Shown: positions 2,051 to 38,345 of the stretch, one piece after another
Layout of the letters: the number at the start of each line of letters is the position of its first letter
Numbering within the stretch: position 1 is the first letter of the stretch
Source of the DNA: Antedon mediterranea
Taxonomy: Eukaryota > Echinodermata > Crinoidea > Comatulida > Antedonidae
Assembly: GCF_964355755.1 (NCBI RefSeq)
Contig: NC_092676.1
Location: forward strand, 23,480,288 to 23,544,287
DNA: 64,000 nucleotides
Direction: 5' to 3'
Notes under the pieces: generated by a model
What the model was told of the DNA's origin: nothing
The model's input: the letters and a program-made list of their open reading frames with translations, nothing else
Databases searched by the model: none
Made by a program: the position numbers and the translations under genes

Positions 2051-5029
2051 CGTGTCGATACCAATACGTTTAGAGTCGACCGTCGACCCGTCGTTACTAG
2101 GGTCACACCCACTCCGGTCACAAAGATGGGTCATGACATTTTTTTTTTAAATAAAAGTACAGTTAGGCCTAAATTTGATTCGCTACGGTAGCAATTTAAA
2201 ATAAAAACCTAAAATATTTGTGTTTAAAATATCCAATACATGATCCTATAAACTATATCTGAATAGGTCGACTAGCAAGTTTCTCCATTTATACGATGTC
2301 GCATTTGCATAGACCTATTATCTATTTTATATGTCTGCTAATGACAATCAATAAATGATATTCCTGCTTGAATACATAATTAGTGCTCGCAGCATAAGAT
2401 GGTATGCTACGCATGTCATTATCCACTTCTAAATCTTTAGGCTGTCTCTGGGCGCACATGATTCAGAGACCATACAACCGATATGAGATCAAACGTGTCC
2501 AAATAATTATGTAGATATGATAATTTCTTTCCACAGAGATTGTATTATGCATATGAAATATTAAATTGTATGAAATTGATAATTACAATTCGAAAAAGCA
2601 ATTAGTGTAAGACAAATCAGTAAGCCATGATGTGAAGAAATGATTTCCAAATATGGAAAGCTTTTTTTGGTGCGGTTCTCTCTTGCTGGGCAGACAACCA
2701 GGTGCTATGGCTCGAATAGCAGACGAAAACAAGCATGGAACACTTTAAAACACAAAAAGTACAAGAGAACGCCATGTGTGCACCTCGTTGTTACAGCATC
2801 CAAGTAGATATTGTGTTAACAGCAGTAATGTAAACCCATTGAGAGCGGCCAGTCATTACACTAATTTAGCTTGTTAAGCACTCTCGAGGCTATATTTTGT
2901 AAAACACCAAACATTAATTAATCGATAAAACGAATAATGAATTCAGCTGTTGGGTACTCATGTCATTTAATAGGATTAAGCTGTGTGATACTATAGTAAT
3001 GTATAACGATGTAATTTCAGTCCAAACAAGCGCTTCTTTATATAATGATCTTTTAGATAATAATTTCCTTGGTTACATACACGTTTGTTTTAACACATTA
3101 CATCTGTTACCATGTGTATACAATGTGTAATGTGAAATACTAACGTATTTGGGATGATATAAAGGGCAATAATTAACTAGCAACAACCCCAAGGCGAAAC
3201 AATCAATTTGGTGCGCAAGTTCAACAGTTGATAACATAGTACAGCTTTTTGTACGCGCGCGTAAACTTTGTGTTTGCCGTACGTACGCGCGTTTGAGAAG
3301 TGATCAAAATGAAAATTACGCGAATAGGCTTACAGTTTAACGTTTAAACAACTACGCCAAGATAATTTTATGTAGAAAATGTTAATTTATATTTGCTAGG
3401 ATATTGATTAAGTATTAAAATAATAACAATATGCAGATATAAAAATAAACATGCTAGGACTCACATGGTTACATTTTAGTAATCTTAAAAATAGATAAAT
3501 GTCATTTAGCTCGGAACTATAAAAGAATTAGAAATCTCTATAGAGTTTAGGCTGATGGATTTGTAAGGACTTAAGTCATAAGTCAATGAGTCGTATCATG
3601 GAAGGACTACATGGTTGTATGAATAGGACATGAAGTTCAAAAGTGGAAGGCTGGAAATGTATATGAATAAATATATATGTAACAAAACATTAAGTCAAAT
3701 GTTTTCCATTACAAAAACAAGCTTAAGTCAAAGTATAATACGCATGATTTAGAGTGTTTAAATACACCTCAGACGCAACACATGGCATCTATTTCTAGTT
3801 CAGAAAAACTTTGGGTTTAAAGTGAAGTTAAGAATGGCACAAATACACATACACATAAAAATAATTCTTTAGATATTTTTAACTGTAATTTTTCTCAATT
3901 TAAATGTATTATTAATGAAATTATTTAAATTTTCTTTTTAATTTGTATATATTTATATTGGCTCATTTTTTATAGTTTAGTTTTTATTTTCAACCTGTTA
4001 TTGGTGTTTTACACTGTTGGTTTGATATAAAGAATAAAGAATACACAATACAGATACACACAGAACCTGGCATAGAAACAACATTCATTTCAACAATTTG
4101 CCAATTAGGCATTTGGTGAAAAAGAGTCCTAACTTATAACCATTCTCAAATAAAATTAGATGAAATATAGTTTTACTGCTTGTGTTGTCGGCTTTACGTT
4201 TTCGAACGACGGTACGCCTATTTGAAAAAAAAAGATATAACACAGAATGCTGTCTGCAGTGGACAGGTGTTTAATTATAATAAATCTGTTTGAAATTACA
4301 TTTCTGGATAACCATTATGAAATCATCATCTAGGCCTTATATAATCATGAACATTTAATGAATTCTTATTATATACAAGTTTCAGGTAAGACTTAGACTT
4401 TCCCCAAGTTTGTAGTTATTGTATTTTTTATGTTAGTCCCAACAATCGGCGTTTCGATTTTCGTCCTAAAACTACAGTTTACGGGCTCAAGTAGTATACG
4501 TATGAAACGCCATATATGCCAAAATGTTTATCTTTTTACTAATATTAAGTCAAAAATCTGTCTAGAACCTAGACTAGGTCTAGCCGTAACACAAGAAGAT
4601 TCTATAAGCGTACTACATTTCAAATAATATATAATTTTGTATAACCATCATTATGTCATCCACAACCATCAGTGTGTGTAACCTTAACACAGTTGTACAG
4701 TTTTATAAGAATAATAGTATGTTTCCACAATAATTCTTGTATCATCAATCCTCGTTAGCCGGCAAATGTTCGTTTACCACCGAATATATTTGACATCGTC
4801 TGTGATTTATTTGAAGTTGAAGCACGACAACATACCATGGGGAGTTGCAATTAATGCACACGTCACTAATTTACCTAATTAAGGCGTCATAAAGTGTCAC
4901 AGTTTGCTTCAGTAATTCTATACGCACAGTAGATCAATAGTAGTGTATGACAGGCCAACTTCGACAAAATGAAGACTATACAGAGGAAATAATTGACCCA
5001 TGGGGAACTTATTTCTCCATGATCTACCT

Positions 5030-19879: not shown

Positions 19880-19950
19880 CGACCGTGGGAATCGAACCCA
19901 CGACATACGTGTTGTTAACACGACGCTCAGACGACTGAGCTAACTGATCA
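19880..19950 (-). mobile_element. tRNA-like (Val-AAC-like) SINE module
   Basis: On the minus strand it has an A-box-like TTAGCTCAGTCG, an anticodon-arm-like TCGTGTTAACAACACG and a B box GGGTTCGATTCCCACG. There is no proper acceptor stem, so it is a SINE-type pol III head and not a working tRNA gene. The copy at 21190-21245 has lost the anticodon arm. Confidence 0.6.
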
Positions 19951-28865: not shown

Positions 28866-29770
28866 GTTGGTGTATATATATATAAACTTTATTTAGACAC
28901 GAGACTGATGTGCAGTACAACTCGTTCAATCAATATTGATTGTTTTTACACAAGTTCGTGATACTGTATTACAAAACAAAAAAATCAACACCATATAAAT
29001 ACAACAGAAACGAAAAAAATTGAAATTGAAAAGAAACAAAATTACAGCAGAATCCCCTTCATCTGACACCTCTATTTAGGGTACACCATACCGGTACTTC
29101 CCGTGTAAACGGGAACCCTTATCGAAGTGTATAATGTATGGGATTCAACTGTAATACATAATAAGTCTTTTGGATTTCATTTACCTTAAAATAATAGTGA
29201 TAAAACACACATTTTACATAGTATTTAGCCATTTTAAAAGTTGGATGTAGATCGTAGATTACCATACCATTATGTTTTACAATGCATTTTTCAGATACGT
29301 TTTAAACAACTTAACTGAATTTGGAAGGGTATCAACATTGAGACTATTCCATATAATTGCTCCACGATAAGACAGACTTCGTTTTTTAAAATCGGTTTTT
29401 GGCTTTGGGATGAATAGATGTGTATCACTGTGCCTTAGATTATAATTTATATCATTGAATGTAAATACATTATTTAGGTAAGGTGGGGCATTATCTGTCA
29501 AAACCTTATATATAACCATACAACATTCATATCTATCTTGATAAAATAAAGGTGACCAATTAATTTGCCTTAGTGCCTCACTACTAGGTGTGTCCCATGT
29601 TAGACCACACACGATTCGAGCTGTTCTGTTTTGGATAGTTTGAACTCTTTTCATTAGAGTTTGACTACTATTTCCCCAAATTATGTTACAATAGCTCAAG
29701 TAAGGTATTACAATAGAGTTTGCAATATGTTTTAATATGTTTTGTGGAAAATAATAGCTACATCGTCTAG
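28866..29770 (-). pseudogene. Non-LTR retrotransposon 3' end (reverse-transcriptase C terminus)
   Basis: Minus-strand frame 29699-29277 reads MSYCNIIWGNSSQTLMKRVQ, then TIQNRTARIVCG, and later SYRGAIIWNSLN. These are the classical end motifs of the RT domain in CR1/L2/RTE-like LINEs (SYCN-WG; QNR-ARI; Y-G---WN-LP). The same frame extends upstream to about 29770 before decaying. Downstream lies a 3' UTR with an AATAAAG at about 28888 and a (TA)n-like tail near 28866. The copy is 5'-truncated and cannot move by itself. Confidence 0.8.
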
Positions 29771-30092
29771 TAGTTATTGGTGGCGGGGCAGTGGTGGTCA
29801 GACGGATGTCGTGCGAACAGACTCTTGGCGTGTTTGCGGCCTAAAACCACAAACACATTTGTAATCAAGCTGTGAACTCATTTGTACATGATGAATACAT
29901 CTTTAGATATTGTCTCGGTTAATAATTAATCTTGAATCTAATTAAAGTACAAGGTAAACATGTATTGCAATACGGCCTATATAATACTTTATTATCAGTT
30001 ACAGACTCTTAAATCTACAATGTGATATTGAAATCATGTTTCAAGTATATTTGTGTTTAAATTACGTTTAGAATTAATTTATATAAATTAGA

Positions 30093-31835: not shown

Positions 31836-31907
31836 TGACCCCGACGTGATTTGAACACGCAACCTTCTGATCTGGAGTCAGACGCGCTACCGTTGCGCCA
31901 CGGAGTC
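31836..31907 (-). tRNA. tRNA-Trp (anticodon CCA)
   Basis: A 72-nt minus-strand gene that folds cleanly. Acceptor stem GACTCCG pairs with CGGGGTC (one G-U), followed by discriminator A. The D arm contains GGCGCAACGGTAGCGC (A box). The anticodon loop is CTCCAGA within TCTGACTCCAGATCAGA, and the T arm carries TTGCGTGTTCAAATCACG (B box). There is no intron and CCA is not encoded, as expected. A T7 run (31829-31823 on the minus strand) follows as a pol III terminator. It is divergent to RPL13A, whose start codon is 245 bp away. Confidence 0.97.
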
Positions 31908-32152: not shown

Positions 32153-35100
32153 ATGTCGAGCTTTGAGAAGGTATGGTTAAAAACTGTGATTGTTTTACTG
32201 GCTTATTCATCATAAGTTATGTTCTTTAACAATAAAATATGAAGTCACTGCATGCTAAATATATTATTACGTTAGGTAGTCTTGTAAATATTTACCAAAC
32301 TTGTACAGATGACTAAAAATATTACAGAAAATGCACAGGCTTATTCACTCGAGTTGTCGGGAGTGTGACTCGAGACAAACCGGCCAGAGAAGAAAAGCAT
32401 GTGCTGTGTGGCATGGCCGAAACTGAACCTGCCTTGACCTAACTCTAAGCCTAGCTAACGAAAGTCCATTGAAATGTGATTGGTTGTATGTTGTGCATTT
32501 GGATTTATTTATTTTATTATTAAATTCTGCTAAAGTTATGCTTTTTTATATAAAAAAGAAAGTTATAGGCCTAGCTAGGTAGGCCTAAATTATAATAAAT
32601 CTTGAAAATATAAAGCCCCTTTTTAAAATTGTTAATTTTTTCGCAGATAAGCCTATTAAAAGAGTTTTTTTACTTTTTACTAGCCTTGTGAAGTACTCTG
32701 CCTCTCTGTAGGCCTAGGCCAAGCTTAGAGTAGCCTATATTTTATTTTCTTATTTCAGTAGGCCGATTGTAATTTGTGGTATGTCAATGATGCTTTACCT
32801 ACATTGTATGATATTTAATGATCATAAAATACATTTTCCTGAGACATCACCACGTTACCACACAGTCACATATTTGTCCTTTCTCTGTGTAGGCCTAATT
32901 TCAACGTTTATCATTTATGATTTAACATTTTATTTCTTGCAGGTGATCATTATTGATGGTAGAGGGCACCTTCTGGGTCGCCTGGCTACCATCGTTGCCA
33001 AAAACATTCTTCAAGGTATGATTTTATGATAGAATTATTTCCTTCAAGAAGTTTGTTTCTAAAAAAATAATTTTTCAGTGATGATGGATAACTGCTGAAT
33101 CAGTTTTGAAGAAAAACCCTTTACATGCACTACCATCTGAGAAAAAAACAAACTTTTGTCCAACGGGGAACATTTTCGCCAATGTAGCACGTCACCGAAG
33201 AACCCCTGCAATGATGAACCACACCGAACCCTATTGAACCAAATCCAACAATTACCCCAATGAGCGAAATCATGCAGTTTATGATGGGCCAGTTACAAGA
33301 TCAGGCCCTCTTCTATAAATGGCTTCATGGACTAATTATCGCTAACTTTGCTGGGTAGATCACCAACTTATCCGGATAAATAAATAACATTCTCATCAAG
33401 TAGTAAATCTATATCATGTTCTTGTTGCACTATTTTCCATAGGTCAAAGGATCGTAGTGGTAAGATGTGAAGGTATCAACATTTCTGGAAGTTTCTACAG
33501 AAACAAATGTAAGTTTACAAATAATTTTAAAATAATATAATTAAATTCTCTCTTTTCTGACAAAAAGAAACAAACGTTTAGTAATATGTCTATGATGTTT
33601 TACCTACATTGTTTGATTTCATGAAAAAAACATTCAATTTCTGAGACATTTACATACAAATGATTTTGACTGAAATTTATAGTTAATAGTTATCAGTTCT
33701 TGACTAATGTTCTTAAAAGTCGAAAGTTAGTAATGTGTACTGTATGTATTATTAATTTTCGATAGTGAAGTATCTTGATTTTCTGCGTAAACGATGTAAC
33801 ACAAAGCCTTCCCGTGGCCCGTACCATCTTAGGGCACCGAGCAAGATGTTCTGGAGAGTAGTCAGAGGTAAAGTTAATGATTTCAACGATTTTTTACTAT
33901 TTATGACATTCATAGAAACCACATCAATGATGAATTCTTTTCTTCTGGATATTCTGTGACAGTTTTTGACATTTGAAATCTGAGATGTGTGTGTGTTGCC
34001 ATGGACATAAGAGTTAAATCCTGATGTAGCAAGTGCCCTTTGCGCTTTCAATGTTCCGCAGTTCTATGTGATAGTATTGACGCTGCTAGACAAACACATT
34101 TTGTTTTTGCAAAAAAACACATAATGTGGTCTAGTACTACCCGTAAATACCAAATGAAAAATATGTGGCTGTCCATGAGATTTCTTTTCACCTGTTTAGT
34201 GTATGGACCATGTGCAATAGTACATGCCTGTTCCAATTCAAAACTGTAGGGACAGTTATATCTCCCACACAGCATTCATTATGTTAATTAATTAATTGTA
34301 TGCTTATTTTATATCAGGTATGCTCCCACACAAGCTAGCCCGTGGAAAGGAAGCTTTAGAGAAACTGAAGGTGTTTGAAGGCATTCCACCTCCATACGAC
34401 AAGAAAAAGAGAATGGTTATACCTGCCGCTCTTAAAGTACTCAAACTTAAGCCCAACAGAAAGGTTAGTATGGCAGTTGTATTTCCAAGCCTAGAGTACT
34501 AAATATTATTGTATATTTTAAGGTTTATGAACGTAGTTTGAGCAAGGTGATCATGAATAATTTCAAGGGATCTACTTGCAACATATAAAAATTAATAGAG
34601 TTTTTGTACACTATCTACATGTCGATGATGGCTTATTCAGCGGAATGAAACATATGTGATTCTAAAATTAAACTACTGAGACATGTTTTCCCATTCAAGA
34701 TAATGATTAGCTTTTTAGGGATCCACTCATCAATACATTTTTATTTAAAAATTAAATTCCCTGGAATGTGAATTTCTAAGTACCTTGTTCAAATGTGCAA
34801 ATATGGTATATTTATCTTTATGTAATTTCTTAAAGATTTTGTATTTGATGGTTTTAGTTTTGTGATCTCGGACGTCTCGGCCACGAAGTTGGATGGAAGT
34901 ACAAGGATGTTGTAGAAACGTTGGAGACAAAACGTAAAGCGAGGGCGCAAATCCGATATGAGAGGAAAAAGAAGTTGCAGGTGTGTTGACATTGAAATTT
35001 GATATTCAGATTTAGTATTGGGTATACTCTATACTATACTTAAAGCTTTTGACAGTGTATACCATATCTTCCTTTTGTATTATATTTTCTATATTCTAGT

Positions 35101-35622
35101 ACCAATGATCGTATTTCAGTGGTGAATTTCTAATTTCAATGTATAAGGTCTGAACTTGATTTGTTTGGACTTATTTTTCTCCTTCCCATGACATATTATG
35201 TTTTAATCATGTTTATAAAGTTTATAACCTGTTTTTTGGTAGAAAAAAGAAAGAAACTGGGTGCCCAAAACTGCAACATTCCAGTAGCCCTTTTAATAAC
35301 TTTTTGTTTGCGTCTGTGATGATATGTAACTCTCTGATCATCAATAAATGAGAGAAAACAATTTACATGCACTACCATCTGAGACAAAATGCAAATGAGC
35401 AAAATGTTATACGACTTATTATACTATTATTCAATAGTGTACGTGTGCATATTATATGTACAAATGTTATGACCTTGCATAATGAGTGTTGAAAATATTA
35501 ACTTAATATATAAAAAATTCTTGTATTACATCTTGCAGAGCATCCGAAAACAAGCTGCTGAAAATGTGATGTCCCAGATCTCAGAACAACAGAAATTCAT
35601 TGAATCTTGCGGCTACCGTTAA
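32153..35622 (+). CDS. RPL13A: 60S ribosomal protein L13a (uL13)
   Basis: Seven coding exons: 32153-32170, 32943-33015, 33443-33508, 33766-33867, 34318-34463, 34858-34980 and 35539-35622 (stop TAA), totalling 203 aa, exactly the human length. It is a universal uL13 component of the large cytosolic ribosomal subunit. The first exon encodes only MSSFEK. Then come [14 protein letters not shown] (uL13 signature), [56 protein letters not shown] and a Lys/Arg-rich helix. The C-terminal extension (after LQ) is less conserved, as in other phyla. All introns are GT-AG. Each of the six introns contains one box C/D snoRNA, as also known for mammalian RPL13A, so the gene is a snoRNA host. Expression is probably controlled translationally through its TOP start. 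Tandem duplications around the 3' UTR and a seventh snoRNA beyond the stop suggest an additional non-coding 3' intron. Confidence 0.98.
32781..32847 (+). ncRNA. Box C/D snoRNA, SNORD34-like (RPL13A intron 1)
   Basis: Terminal stem ATGTC/GACAT encloses C box AATGATGC and D box CTGA (32839-32842). The guide TTTACCTACATTGT precedes a D'-like ATGA. From established knowledge, 28S rRNA contains ACAATGTAGGTAA, which pairs with this guide; it is the site served by SNORD34 in mammals. A paralogue sits in intron 3. Confidence 0.8.
33071..33146 (+). ncRNA. Box C/D snoRNA, SNORD33-like (RPL13A intron 2)
   Basis: Stem TTTTTC/GAAAAA, C box AGTGATGA (33077-33084), D' box CTGA (33095-33098) and D box CTGA (33137-33140). 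The guide ACATGCACTACCAT lies directly upstream of box D, the same string as in vertebrate SNORD33, which directs 2'-O-methylation of 18S rRNA. Confidence 0.85.
33586..33649 (+). ncRNA. Box C/D snoRNA, SNORD34-like (RPL13A intron 3)
   Basis: Stem ATGTC/GACAT, C box TATGATGT, guide TTTTACCTACATTGT next to D' box TTGA (33613-33616), and D box CTGA (33641-33644). Clearly a paralogue of the intron 1 snoRNA, with the same guide and same stem. Confidence 0.85.
33920..33989 (+). ncRNA. Box C/D snoRNA (RPL13A intron 4), target unassigned
   Basis: A six-bp terminal stem CACATC/GATGTG encloses a perfect C box ATGATGA (33927-33933) and D box CTGA (33980-33983). Possible guides are TTTGACATTTGAAAT upstream of D and TCTTCTGGATATT upstream of a D'-like CTGT. 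I could not assign a target by eye. Confidence 0.75.
34617..34686 (+). ncRNA. Box C/D snoRNA (RPL13A intron 5), target unassigned
   Basis: A seven-bp stem ACATGTC/GACATGT encloses C box GATGATGG (34624-34631) and D box CTGA (34676-34679). Possible guide regions are CTAAAATTAAACTA upstream of D and GGCTTATTCAGCGGA further 5'. No target recognised. Confidence 0.75.
35310..35388 (+). ncRNA. Box C/D snoRNA, SNORD33-like (RPL13A intron 6)
   Basis: C box TGTGATGA (C core 35316-35322), D' box CTGA (35334-35337), C'-like ATGAGA, guide TTACATGCACTACCAT and D box CTGA (35379-35382). A short GTC/GAC closing stem. A paralogue of the intron 2 and 3'-flank snoRNAs. Confidence 0.85.
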
Positions 35623-35704
35623 TATTTAAAAAGAAACTTTATAAAATCTGCAGGTACTTGTTAATATTTAAAAAGAAACTTTATAAAATCTGCAGGTACT
35701 TGTT
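35621..35704 (+). repeat. Tandem duplication, 42 bp x 2, at the RPL13A stop codon
   Basis: AATATTTAAAAAGAAACTTT...CTGCAGGTACTTGTT occurs at 35621 and again at 35663. Each copy contains CTGCAG/GTACTT, a plausible 5' splice site just after the stop codon. Confidence 0.85.
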
Positions 35705-35831
35705 AAATTTCCTAATTCAATTCACATTTATTTAGTCATCATTTATAATTACAATTACAGTATATCAAGAAGTTTATAATTTTAAACATTCTGTAAATAA
35801 CACCTGTTGTCATTGGTATTCACTATTTAAA

Positions 35832-35911
35832 TTTGTCTGTGATGATGATGGTATTCTCTGACATTCATAGATGAGAGAAACCCCTTACATGCACTACCAT
35901 CTGAGACTAAA
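35832..35911 (+). ncRNA. Box C/D snoRNA, SNORD33-like, downstream of the RPL13A stop
   Basis: C box GTGATGA (35839-35845), D' box CTGA (about 35858-35861), C' ATGAGA, guide TTACATGCACTACCAT and D box CTGA (35901-35904), closed by GTC/GAC. It lies 209 bp beyond the RPL13A stop codon. As animal box C/D RNAs of this class are normally intron-encoded, it argues for a 3'-UTR intron in the host transcript. Confidence 0.85.
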
Positions 35912-36298
35912 TGCCAATGTTCCATCTTGTACAATTTGTGAATATCACAGATTTCATTATTAAATTTAGTAGTTTAGCCTAAATGCCTTGAAAAACCCTC
36001 CTGTCAAGCTCAGTCCCACTTTGATTTAATTTTTATCTAATTTTCAAAACCATTACAGTAGTTGAACTTGGGTTTTAAATGAGATATATTATAACCCATC
36101 GTGTTCCAAATTGTACACGAGTTATATACAGAAACATCTTATTCCACCCAGGTGTAGAACTGGGTACTTAGTAAGGTCAAGACACAACTTTGCGTTATGG
36201 GCCCGGAGTATGTTTCCATACATGTTTGATAAAAAAAAAATTACCAGGGTAATAATATGTACAGCGTTTTACAACATTAGGAGCTTTATAAATATTAT

Positions 36299-36632
36299 TA
36301 TATTATAGACTAATTAAATATGTACAATGTAGTTACCACTGGAAAGGGAATAAGGCTGTATATTATGAATGTATTCAAATTTCTATTAATGTACATGACC
36401 TTTAAAAGTTAATAAACGCTAATTCAGTAGAATATTTTTCTTGCAGAGAAACATCGACAAATAAATTTTATTATTATAGACTAATTAAATATGTACAATG
36501 TAGCTACCACTGGAAATGGAATAATGCTGTAAATGATGAATGTTTTCTAATTTCTATTAATGTACATGACCTTTAAAAGTTAATAAACGCTAATTCAGTA
36601 GAATATTTTTCTTGCAGAGAAACATCGACAAA
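36299..36632 (+). repeat. Tandem duplication, 171 bp x 2, downstream of RPL13A
   Basis: The block TAGACTAATTAAATATGTAC...TTTTTCTTGCAGAGAAACATC occurs twice, with the 3' ends at 36447 and 36618. Each copy has a polypyrimidine tract plus TTGCAG/AGAAAC, a good candidate 3' splice site, and an internal GTTAATAAACGC. The second copy leads into about 150 bp that ends in AATAAA at 36773-36778, a candidate last 3'-UTR exon. Confidence 0.85.
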
Positions 36633-37225: not shown

Positions 37226-38010
37226 AGGGGACACTTTTCCATGAATTAAATGGTGATCAGTTGTTTTTACACTATACAATACTGTATAGCTAACCCTTAT
37301 CCAAGGCCTTTTGTTGGGTTCTAAAAGTGTCCAGTTAATAGGTGTACTCGGGTAACTAGTTTTGTTGATTGTTTGGAAGTTTTATTTATTGGATTTAAAG
37401 AACAATACTGTACATCTAATGTAGAATATTTCCTATAAAGAAAATTGTGGTTGACGTTGATTTCACAACACAGTATAACGTGCTAATTGGCTGAATACAG
37501 CAGCACTTGAATATTCGATACATCTTTGCACTTTGACATCCGTTATGACGAGATCCTTTTCTATACATATCGATTTTGTTGTTTATCATTTCCCTAATTT
37601 TTGTCTCGCAAAAATTGTTCTTGTGTAGAATTCTTTGTCACAATGATAGAATGCTTATCCTCAAACTTCCTACCTTGAAACAAAAAGGAAGTGAAAATTG
37701 ATTTCTAAAATACACAACAGATGTTTATGATTTTTAGAAGATTAACCCGGCTTTTTCGATGTTCGAGATCACAAGAGTTTTGAGACGGAGCAATAAGTGT
37801 AGATATATCATTTACGTAACTGGAGGATATGAAAGCTGATGGTTTATTGATTTGGTGAAGTGATAAATGTGTTGTCGGGCTGTGTCAAAGCCTTTGTGTT
37901 CAGTTCAATATTGATTTAACATTTTTCTTTACGTAATGAAAGATACAGTTCAACTAGAATGATTACTTAAACGAATGATATAGCAAGAAGAATAGAAACT
38001 CATTCAGGTT

Positions 38011-38345
38011 TTTATGGCCATACTGCGTTAAAATACCGGTTCTCATTAGATCATCAAAGTTAAGCAACATTGGGCCTGGTTGTGTTGTGGATGAAAGACC
38101 ATCTGGAACTTGCGTCAGGTGGTGTATACACCGGAGAATAATGATATTATAATGCACATATAATGCGGGTTAAAGAACTTGGTACATAATTCGAAAAGAG
38201 TAGGGGTCGTCTCTCGGTGTGCTGGCTCCCGTAGGTCCTTGGAGGACATAATCTGAATTTCCTCATATTCCAGTTAAGCTTGAGGATCAGAATAAATACC
38301 TTACCTCATTAGAATTAAAGTGGTAACCACTATTGTACTTAATTA
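38011..38345 (+). mobile_element. 5S rRNA-derived SINE (SINE3 / Deu-SINE type)
   Basis: The head follows 5S rRNA along most of its length: TATGGCCATACTGCG, then AAAGTTAAGCAACATTGGGC, CTGGTTGTGTTGTGGATG, AAAGACCATCTGGAAC, and AGGTGGTGTATAC at about 38132. The internal pol III promoter (A box near AAGTTAAGCA, C box near GGATGAAAGACC) is recognisable but mutated. The body has GTTAAAGAACTTGGTACATA and AAAAGAGTAGGGGTCG. From memory this resembles the Deu domain shared by deuterostome SINEs; that part is inference. It ends near AAGCTTGAGGATCAG. Confidence 0.7.

What the first reader, a model, noticed from the sequence alone, without database searches (positions are those of the whole stretch)
32781..35911. 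Seven box C/D snoRNAs at the RPL13A locus, one in each of six introns and one past the stop codon
Every intron carries a stem-closed C...D unit. Three share the SNORD33-type guide (ACATGCACTACCAT) and two the SNORD34-type guide (TTACCTACATTGT). Two have guides I cannot assign. Mammalian RPL13A hosts SNORD32A, 33, 34 and 35A, so host and guides are anciently linked, but here SNORD33 has expanded to three copies and SNORD34 to two. SNORD33 copies occupy introns 2 and 6 and the 3' flank; SNORD34 copies occupy introns 1 and 3. The two unassigned guides could target new rRNA positions.
Basis: partly seen in the sequence, partly recalled or inferred. Interest (0 to 1): 0.78.

Follow-up and report, generated by a model that had tools for sequence, protein, structure and literature searches.

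The report
Seven snoRNAs in RPL13A gene
An invertebrate ribosomal-protein gene (RPL13A) carries a small RNA that guides ribosome modification in each of its six coding introns plus one after the stop codon; five are copies of two guides already known from mammalian RPL13A, so this is a well-supported but largely ordinary case of snoRNA duplication inside one host gene.

Summary
The host is RPL13A (uL13): seven coding exons and six introns, each intron with one box C/D unit, and a seventh unit past the stop. A strict scan for C box, D box and closing stem over both strands of all 64 kb returns only the units of introns 1-5 (0.03-0.08 expected by chance in the gene region). The units in intron 6 and after the stop have short stems but match Rfam SNORD33.

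Rfam models and this genome's own rRNA confirm SNORD33 x3 (18S U1267, by recollection human U1326) and SNORD34 x2 (28S U2090, by recollection human U2824). No further copies were found in the genome.

Of the two unassigned units, the intron-4 one has an 11-bp D-guide match to 18S C306, suggestive only (about 0.4-1% per guide by chance). The intron-5 unit has no significant target.

The expansion fits documented cis-duplication of snoRNAs within a host. The same genome holds two SNORD35 copies in RPS11 and two complete plus one truncated in RPS16; none is in RPL13A. The post-stop copy probably lies inside the RPL13A transcript, because no AATAAA or ATTAAA precedes it; whether it is intronic is unresolved. 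A new member of a known kind.

The parts
32153..35622 (+). RPL13A (uL13) coding region, 7 coding exons: 32153-32170, 32943-33015, 33443-33508, 33766-33867, 34318-34463, 34858-34980, 35539-35622 (stop included)
   Evidence: open 203-aa conceptual protein with GT-AG introns (the intron 5 borders are shifted by one base here to fit GT-AG); Pfam Ribosomal_L13 9e-23; PDB uL13 chains
32780..32849 (+). u1: SNORD34-type box C/D unit, intron 1; C box ATGATGC 32787, D box CTGA 32839, D'-type guide TTACCTACATTGT
   Evidence: Rfam SNORD34 37.7 bits (cut-off 38), E 9e-5; 13 WC bp to 28S U2090
33071..33146 (+). u2: SNORD33-type unit, intron 2; C box GTGATGA 33078, D box CTGA 33137, guide ACATGCACTACCAT
   Evidence: Rfam SNORD33 45.4 bits, above cut-off; 13 bp to 18S U1267
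33584..33651 (+). u3: SNORD34-type unit, intron 3; C box ATGATGT 33592, D box CTGA 33641
   Evidence: Rfam SNORD34 52.3 bits, above cut-off; same 28S target
33919..33992 (+). u4: unassigned box C/D unit, intron 4; C box ATGATGA 33927, D box CTGA 33980, 6-bp closing stem CACATC/GATGTG, D guide GACATTTGAAAT
   Evidence: strict scan; 11 WC bp to 18S C306 in the D register; unique in the genome; Rfam SNORD36 only 26.6 bits, below its cut-off of 30
34617..34686 (+). u5: unassigned box C/D unit, intron 5; C box ATGATGG 34625, D box CTGA 34676, 7-bp closing stem ACATGTC/GACATGT
   Evidence: strict scan; unique in the genome; no significant rRNA or snRNA target
35308..35389 (+). u6: SNORD33-type unit, intron 6; C box GTGATGA 35317, D box CTGA 35379
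   Evidence: Rfam SNORD33 43.1 bits, just under the cut-off of 44, E 1.3e-5; same 18S target
35831..35911 (+). u7: SNORD33-type unit past the RPL13A stop codon; C box GTGATGA 35839, D box CTGA 35901
   Evidence: Rfam SNORD33 45.2 bits, above cut-off; no AATAAA or ATTAAA between stop and u7; flank similarity to u6
35654..36617 (+). possible 3'-UTR intron that would contain u7: donor-like CAG|GTACTT at 35654 or 35696, acceptor-like TTTTTCTTGCAG ending at 36446 or 36617, or CCACCCAG ending at 36151
   Evidence: splice-site scoring only; donor-like motif in the top 3.3% of GTs, acceptors 36446 and 36617 unremarkable; not proven

Best explanation
RPL13A is a multi-snoRNA host gene. Each intron is spliced from the pre-mRNA. 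The C/D motif binds the box C/D proteins, exonucleases trim the debranched intron to a 65-80-nt RNA, and the resulting snoRNP directs 2'-O-methylation 5 nt upstream of box D or D'. u2, u6 and u7 (SNORD33) redundantly guide 18S U1267. u1 and u3 (SNORD34) redundantly guide 28S U2090. u4 and u5 are further box C/D snoRNAs: u4 may guide 18S C306, and u5 is an orphan. The extra SNORD33 and SNORD34 copies arose by cis-duplication between introns of the host. u7 is a sister of u6 that landed behind the stop codon and is most likely released from the same transcript. Shown here: gene structure, boxes, stems for u1-u5, family matches, duplexes to the genome's own rRNA, and copy number. Inferred: expression, processing, methylation and the duplication mechanism.
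For: Rfam SNORD33 and SNORD34 matches. The strict C/D-plus-stem scan finds only RPL13A introns in 64 kb on both strands, against 0.03-0.08 expected in the gene region. Guide-rRNA duplexes in the D+5 register beat the shuffled guides: -22.5 versus a null minimum of -18 to -20 kcal/mol for SNORD33; -21.5 and -18.8 versus -18.0 and -16.1 for SNORD34; 13 WC bp with 0 of 100 shuffles for SNORD34. The guide plus D block is 22/22 identical in all three SNORD33 copies while the rest of the unit is only 17-19 of 40 identical, which is the pattern of selection on the guide. Closing stems differ between units yet stay paired. Parallel cis-duplication of SNORD35 in RPS11 and RPS16 in the same genome. Published precedent for cis-duplication of snoRNAs within one host gene (PMC2653536; PMC3412847).
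Against: No RNA data exist for this genome here, so expression and methylation are untested. u6 and u7 have only about 3-4 bp closing stems. Single-strand folding gives no significant z-scores, which is usual for C/D snoRNAs. The rDNA copies in the assembly are fragmentary and may include pseudogenes. u5 has no target.
Confidence: 0.93

Rival explanations
1. Only part of the set is active: one SNORD33 and one SNORD34 copy plus perhaps u4 and u5 are expressed, and the others (especially u7 outside the coding introns, and u1 or u6) are decaying duplicates.
For: A truncated SNORD35 copy without its 3' half exists in RPS16 of this genome, so copies do die here. u1 and u6 fall just under the Rfam cut-offs. 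u6 and u7 have short stems.
Against: All three SNORD33 guides and D boxes are identical over 22 nt although their surroundings have diverged to about 45% identity. u1 and u3 both keep 13 WC bp to 28S.
Confidence: 0.3
2. u7 is not part of the RPL13A transcription unit but is transcribed independently from its own promoter.
For: It lies about 215 nt past the stop codon; independently transcribed snoRNAs exist in some animals (general knowledge).
Against: No canonical AATAAA or ATTAAA lies between the stop and u7; the first are at 35959 and 36411, so the RPL13A transcript most likely covers u7. No promoter was tested.
Confidence: 0.2
3. u4 is a guide for a lineage-specific 18S methylation at C306.
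For: 11 contiguous WC bp starting at the second base from box D, in the D+5 register; 0.16% of dinucleotide and 0.3% of mononucleotide shuffles do as well. The 11-nt 18S target is intact in two rDNA copies and altered by one base in a third.
Against: Background rate is not negligible: 4 of the other 382 CTGA sites in the window and 0.36% of random 20-mers also reach 11 bp, and about 9 guides were tried. The duplex is weak (-13.3 versus a null minimum of -13.1 kcal/mol).
Confidence: 0.4
4. u4 and u5 are chance C/D look-alikes in introns.
For: Neither matches an Rfam family above cut-off; u5 has no target.
Against: Both have 6-7 bp closing stems directly flanking perfect C and D boxes, and only RPL13A introns in the whole 64 kb have such units; 0.03 expected at stem 5 or more.
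Confidence: 0.07

Closest known systems
Mammalian RPL13A with SNORD32A, SNORD33, SNORD34 and SNORD35A
   Same: Same host gene; SNORD33 and SNORD34 with the same guides, each in its own intron (mouse order SNORD32a, 33, 34, 35 in PMC4234469; human positions from general knowledge).
   Different: Three SNORD33 and two SNORD34 copies here; no SNORD35 in this host (one search places it in RPS11 and RPS16); two further units; one unit past the stop.
snoRNA cis-duplication within a host gene (chicken, sponges, nematodes, platypus)
   Same: Paralogous snoRNAs in neighbouring introns of one host, described as the main route of snoRNA gain in chicken (PMC2653536); in sponges an H/ACA snoRNA is duplicated within RPL13A itself (PMC3412847).
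   Different: Here two C/D families are multiplied in one gene until every coding intron is occupied.
SNORD35 in RPS11 (human SNORD35B, from general knowledge)
   Same: SNORD35 also found here in RPS11 introns.
   Different: Two copies in RPS11 and two complete plus one truncated in RPS16 in this genome.

Membership tests
box C/D snoRNA | C box (RUGAUGA-like) and D box (CUGA) at the ends | tested here: met
   all seven have [AG]TGATGN and CTGA; u1, u3 and u5 depart from the C consensus at its last base
box C/D snoRNA | terminal stem next to the boxes | tested here: met
   5-7 bp for u1-u5; only about 3-4 bp for u6 and u7, so weak for those two
box C/D snoRNA | 10-21 nt antisense to rRNA or snRNA directly upstream of D or D', with the D+5 base paired | tested here: met
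   u1, u2, u3, u6 and u7 yes; u4 suggestive; u5 not found
box C/D snoRNA | expressed as a small RNA bound by fibrillarin, NOP56, NOP58 and 15.5K | not testable with these tools
   no RNA data
SNORD33 (RF00133) | covariance model score at or above gathering (44 bits) | tested here: met
   u2 45.4, u7 45.2; u6 43.1 just below, E 1.3e-5
SNORD33 (RF00133) | D guide to the conserved 18S U (human U1326 by recollection) | tested here: met
   13 bp to 18S around U1267 for u2, u6 and u7
SNORD34 (RF00147) | covariance model score at or above gathering (38 bits) | tested here: met
   u3 52.3; u1 37.7 just below, E 9e-5
SNORD34 (RF00147) | D'-type guide to the conserved 28S U (human U2824 by recollection) | tested here: met
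   13 WC bp plus 2 more to 28S around U2090 for u1 and u3
SNORD36 (RF00049), considered for u4 | score at or above gathering (30 bits) | tested here: not met
   26.6 bits, E 0.43; the D guide does not match the SNORD36 consensus guide
SNORD35 (RF00211), considered for u4 and u5 | match to the family model in RPL13A | tested here: not met
   genome search puts SNORD35 in other genes, none in RPL13A

The most novel reading that the evidence does not exclude
u4 and u5 guide lineage-specific ribosomal methylations (u4: 18S C306), and u7 is made from a spliced 3'-UTR intron that exists to carry a snoRNA, so that every intron of this ribosomal-protein gene, coding or not, is a snoRNA carrier.
Probability: 0.2. 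Interest if true: 0.45.

Novelty: new member of a known kind. Interest (0 to 1): 0.3.

Why it matters
It documents that the RPL13A-SNORD33/34 host link reaches outside vertebrates and that the two families multiplied inside the host until every coding intron was filled. Together with SNORD35 in RPS11 and RPS16 of the same genome, it argues that SNORD35A in mammalian RPL13A was not part of the arrangement shared with this lineage, or was lost here. It gives one concrete, testable candidate methylation site (18S C306). None of this changes how snoRNAs are understood to work.

Tried and rejected
(1) Rfam SSU and LSU models over the whole genome failed twice, so rRNA was found with short 18S and 28S pieces written from memory, fetched and identified with Rfam. 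(2) COX1, sought to place the organism, was not in the assembly. (3) Extra SNORD33/34 copies: the 1-mismatch guide hit L022 and the exact hit L023 lack C/D boxes and Rfam matches, rejected. (4) u5 D' guide to the 28S 5' end (9 WC bp, or 13 bp with a 2-nt bulge, -19.3 kcal/mol): null mean -18.3 and 8 of 100 shuffles as good, rejected. (5) u7 D' guide to 28S (8 bp): 12 of 100 shuffles, rejected. (7) SNORD36 for u4. (8) A 3'-UTR intron around u7: donor-like CAG|GTACTT occurs twice because of a tandem copy of the CDS end, so it may be incidental; left open. (9) Paper searches found no report on this locus in invertebrates; the library is partial and three searches failed on syntax.

Full report
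Observation. The stretch is the RPL13A (uL13) gene. Seven exons give an open 203-aa protein with GT-AG introns, which Pfam calls Ribosomal_L13 at 9e-23 and which matches uL13 chains of solved ribosomes. Each of the six introns holds one box C/D unit, and a seventh lies about 215 nt past the stop codon.

Chance. A strict rule ([AG]TGATGN, then CTGA, with at least 4 bp of closing stem) applied to both strands of all 64 kb returns five places, exactly the units of introns 1-5. Dinucleotide shuffles of the gene region give 0.08 (stem of 4 or more) or 0.03 (stem of 5 or more) on average and never more than one. The units in intron 6 and past the stop do not pass because their stems are short, but both match Rfam SNORD33 (45.2 bits for u7, above cut-off; 43.1 for u6, just below).

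Identity. u2, u6 and u7 are SNORD33; u1 and u3 are SNORD34. Against the rRNA of this same genome (L007: 18S, 5.8S and most of 28S; L014 and L015 for the rest), the SNORD33 guide forms 13 bp with 18S (two G-U) with the D+5 base on U1267. The SNORD34 guide forms 13 Watson-Crick bp plus two further pairs with 28S with the D'+5 base on U2090. Duplex energies of -22.5 (SNORD33) and -21.5 and -18.8 (SNORD34) kcal/mol exceed all shuffled guides. From general knowledge these correspond to human 18S U1326 and 28S U2824.

Copy number. Genome searches with the two Rfam models and with guide patterns at up to one mismatch return only the RPL13A copies; the two other places inspected (L022, L023) have no C/D boxes and no Rfam match. 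Only the best candidates are scored in such searches, so a diverged copy could be missed.

Selection. Between the three SNORD33 copies the guide plus D block is identical over 22 nt, while the interval between C box and guide is 17-19 of 40 identical and the 3' flank 9-16 of 26-29. u6 and u7 also share flanking sequence, so u7 is most simply a copy of u6. Closing stems differ in sequence but stay paired in u1-u5.

Unassigned units. u4 and u5 are single-copy in the genome. The u4 D guide has 11 contiguous Watson-Crick pairs with 18S in the correct register, with the D+5 base on C306; 0.16% of dinucleotide and 0.3% of mononucleotide shuffles do as well. But 4 of the 382 other CTGA sites of the window reach 11 bp too, and about nine guides were tried, so the family-wise chance is roughly 5-10%. 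To my knowledge no human 18S methylation is listed at the matching place. The u5 guide finds no target better than shuffles, nor in human snRNAs recalled from memory.

Past-the-stop copy. No AATAAA or ATTAAA lies between the stop codon and u7; the first are at 35959 and 36411, so the RPL13A transcript very likely runs through u7. A donor-like CAG|GTACTT at 35654 and again at 35696 and acceptors at 36446/36617 or 36151 would make u7 intronic, but the donor-like motif comes from a 42-bp tandem copy of the end of the coding sequence and scores below the coding-intron donors. This is unresolved.

Wider pattern. The same genome holds SNORD35 not in RPL13A but in RPS11 (two copies in L032, almost identical) and RPS16 (two complete copies and one without its 3' half in L033), all on the same chromosome as RPL13A. 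Multiplying snoRNAs within ribosomal-protein hosts is therefore general in this genome. The literature calls it cis-duplication and describes it in chicken (PMC2653536) and in sponges, including an H/ACA snoRNA duplicated within sponge RPL13A (PMC3412847).

Organism. The assembly is 354 Mb in 18 contigs. The 18S reads to me like an echinoderm or close relative, but this is recollection and was not tested.

Verdict. The open points are the targets of u4 and u5 and how u7 is made.

Noticed in passing
L032 (G000:C7:25457000-25463500), minus strand 2723-2799 and 3466-3542: Two nearly identical SNORD35 copies in introns of RPS11 (38.9 and 38.3 bits); human SNORD35B is also in RPS11 (general knowledge).
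   Followed up: yes
L033 (G000:C7:28642500-28650500), minus strand 3044-3116, 3804-3878 and 4879-4918: Two complete SNORD35-like units and one truncated copy lacking its 3' half in or beside RPS16, with duplicated flanks: a snoRNA caught in duplication and decay.
   Followed up: partly
35593-35706: A 42-bp tandem repeat covers the end of the RPL13A coding sequence and the start of its 3' UTR; the repeats carry CAG|GTACTT, a donor-like motif absent from the first unit.
   Followed up: partly
36294-36632: A 168-bp tandem duplication (94% identical) downstream of RPL13A, each copy ending in an acceptor-like TTTTTCTTGCAG.
   Followed up: partly
L007, L014, L015, L016 (contig C2): rRNA genes in the assembly are scattered and broken; in L007 the 28S match stops near the GTAACTATGAC site where R2 retroelements usually insert (recollection), so the copies fetched may be inactive.
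   Followed up: no
38010-38130 (+); 31836-31907 (-); 19880-19949 (-): A 5S rRNA match barely over its cut-off (38.4 versus 38 bits) and two tRNA matches in the window.
   Followed up: no
29277-29840 (-): 187-aa open frame that looks like the end of a non-LTR retrotransposon reverse transcriptase (by eye).
   Followed up: no
28S 5' end, L007 about 2810-2830: The D' guides of u5 (9 bp) and u7 (8 bp) both have their best matches in the same 20 nt near the 28S 5' end; neither is significant alone.
   Followed up: partly
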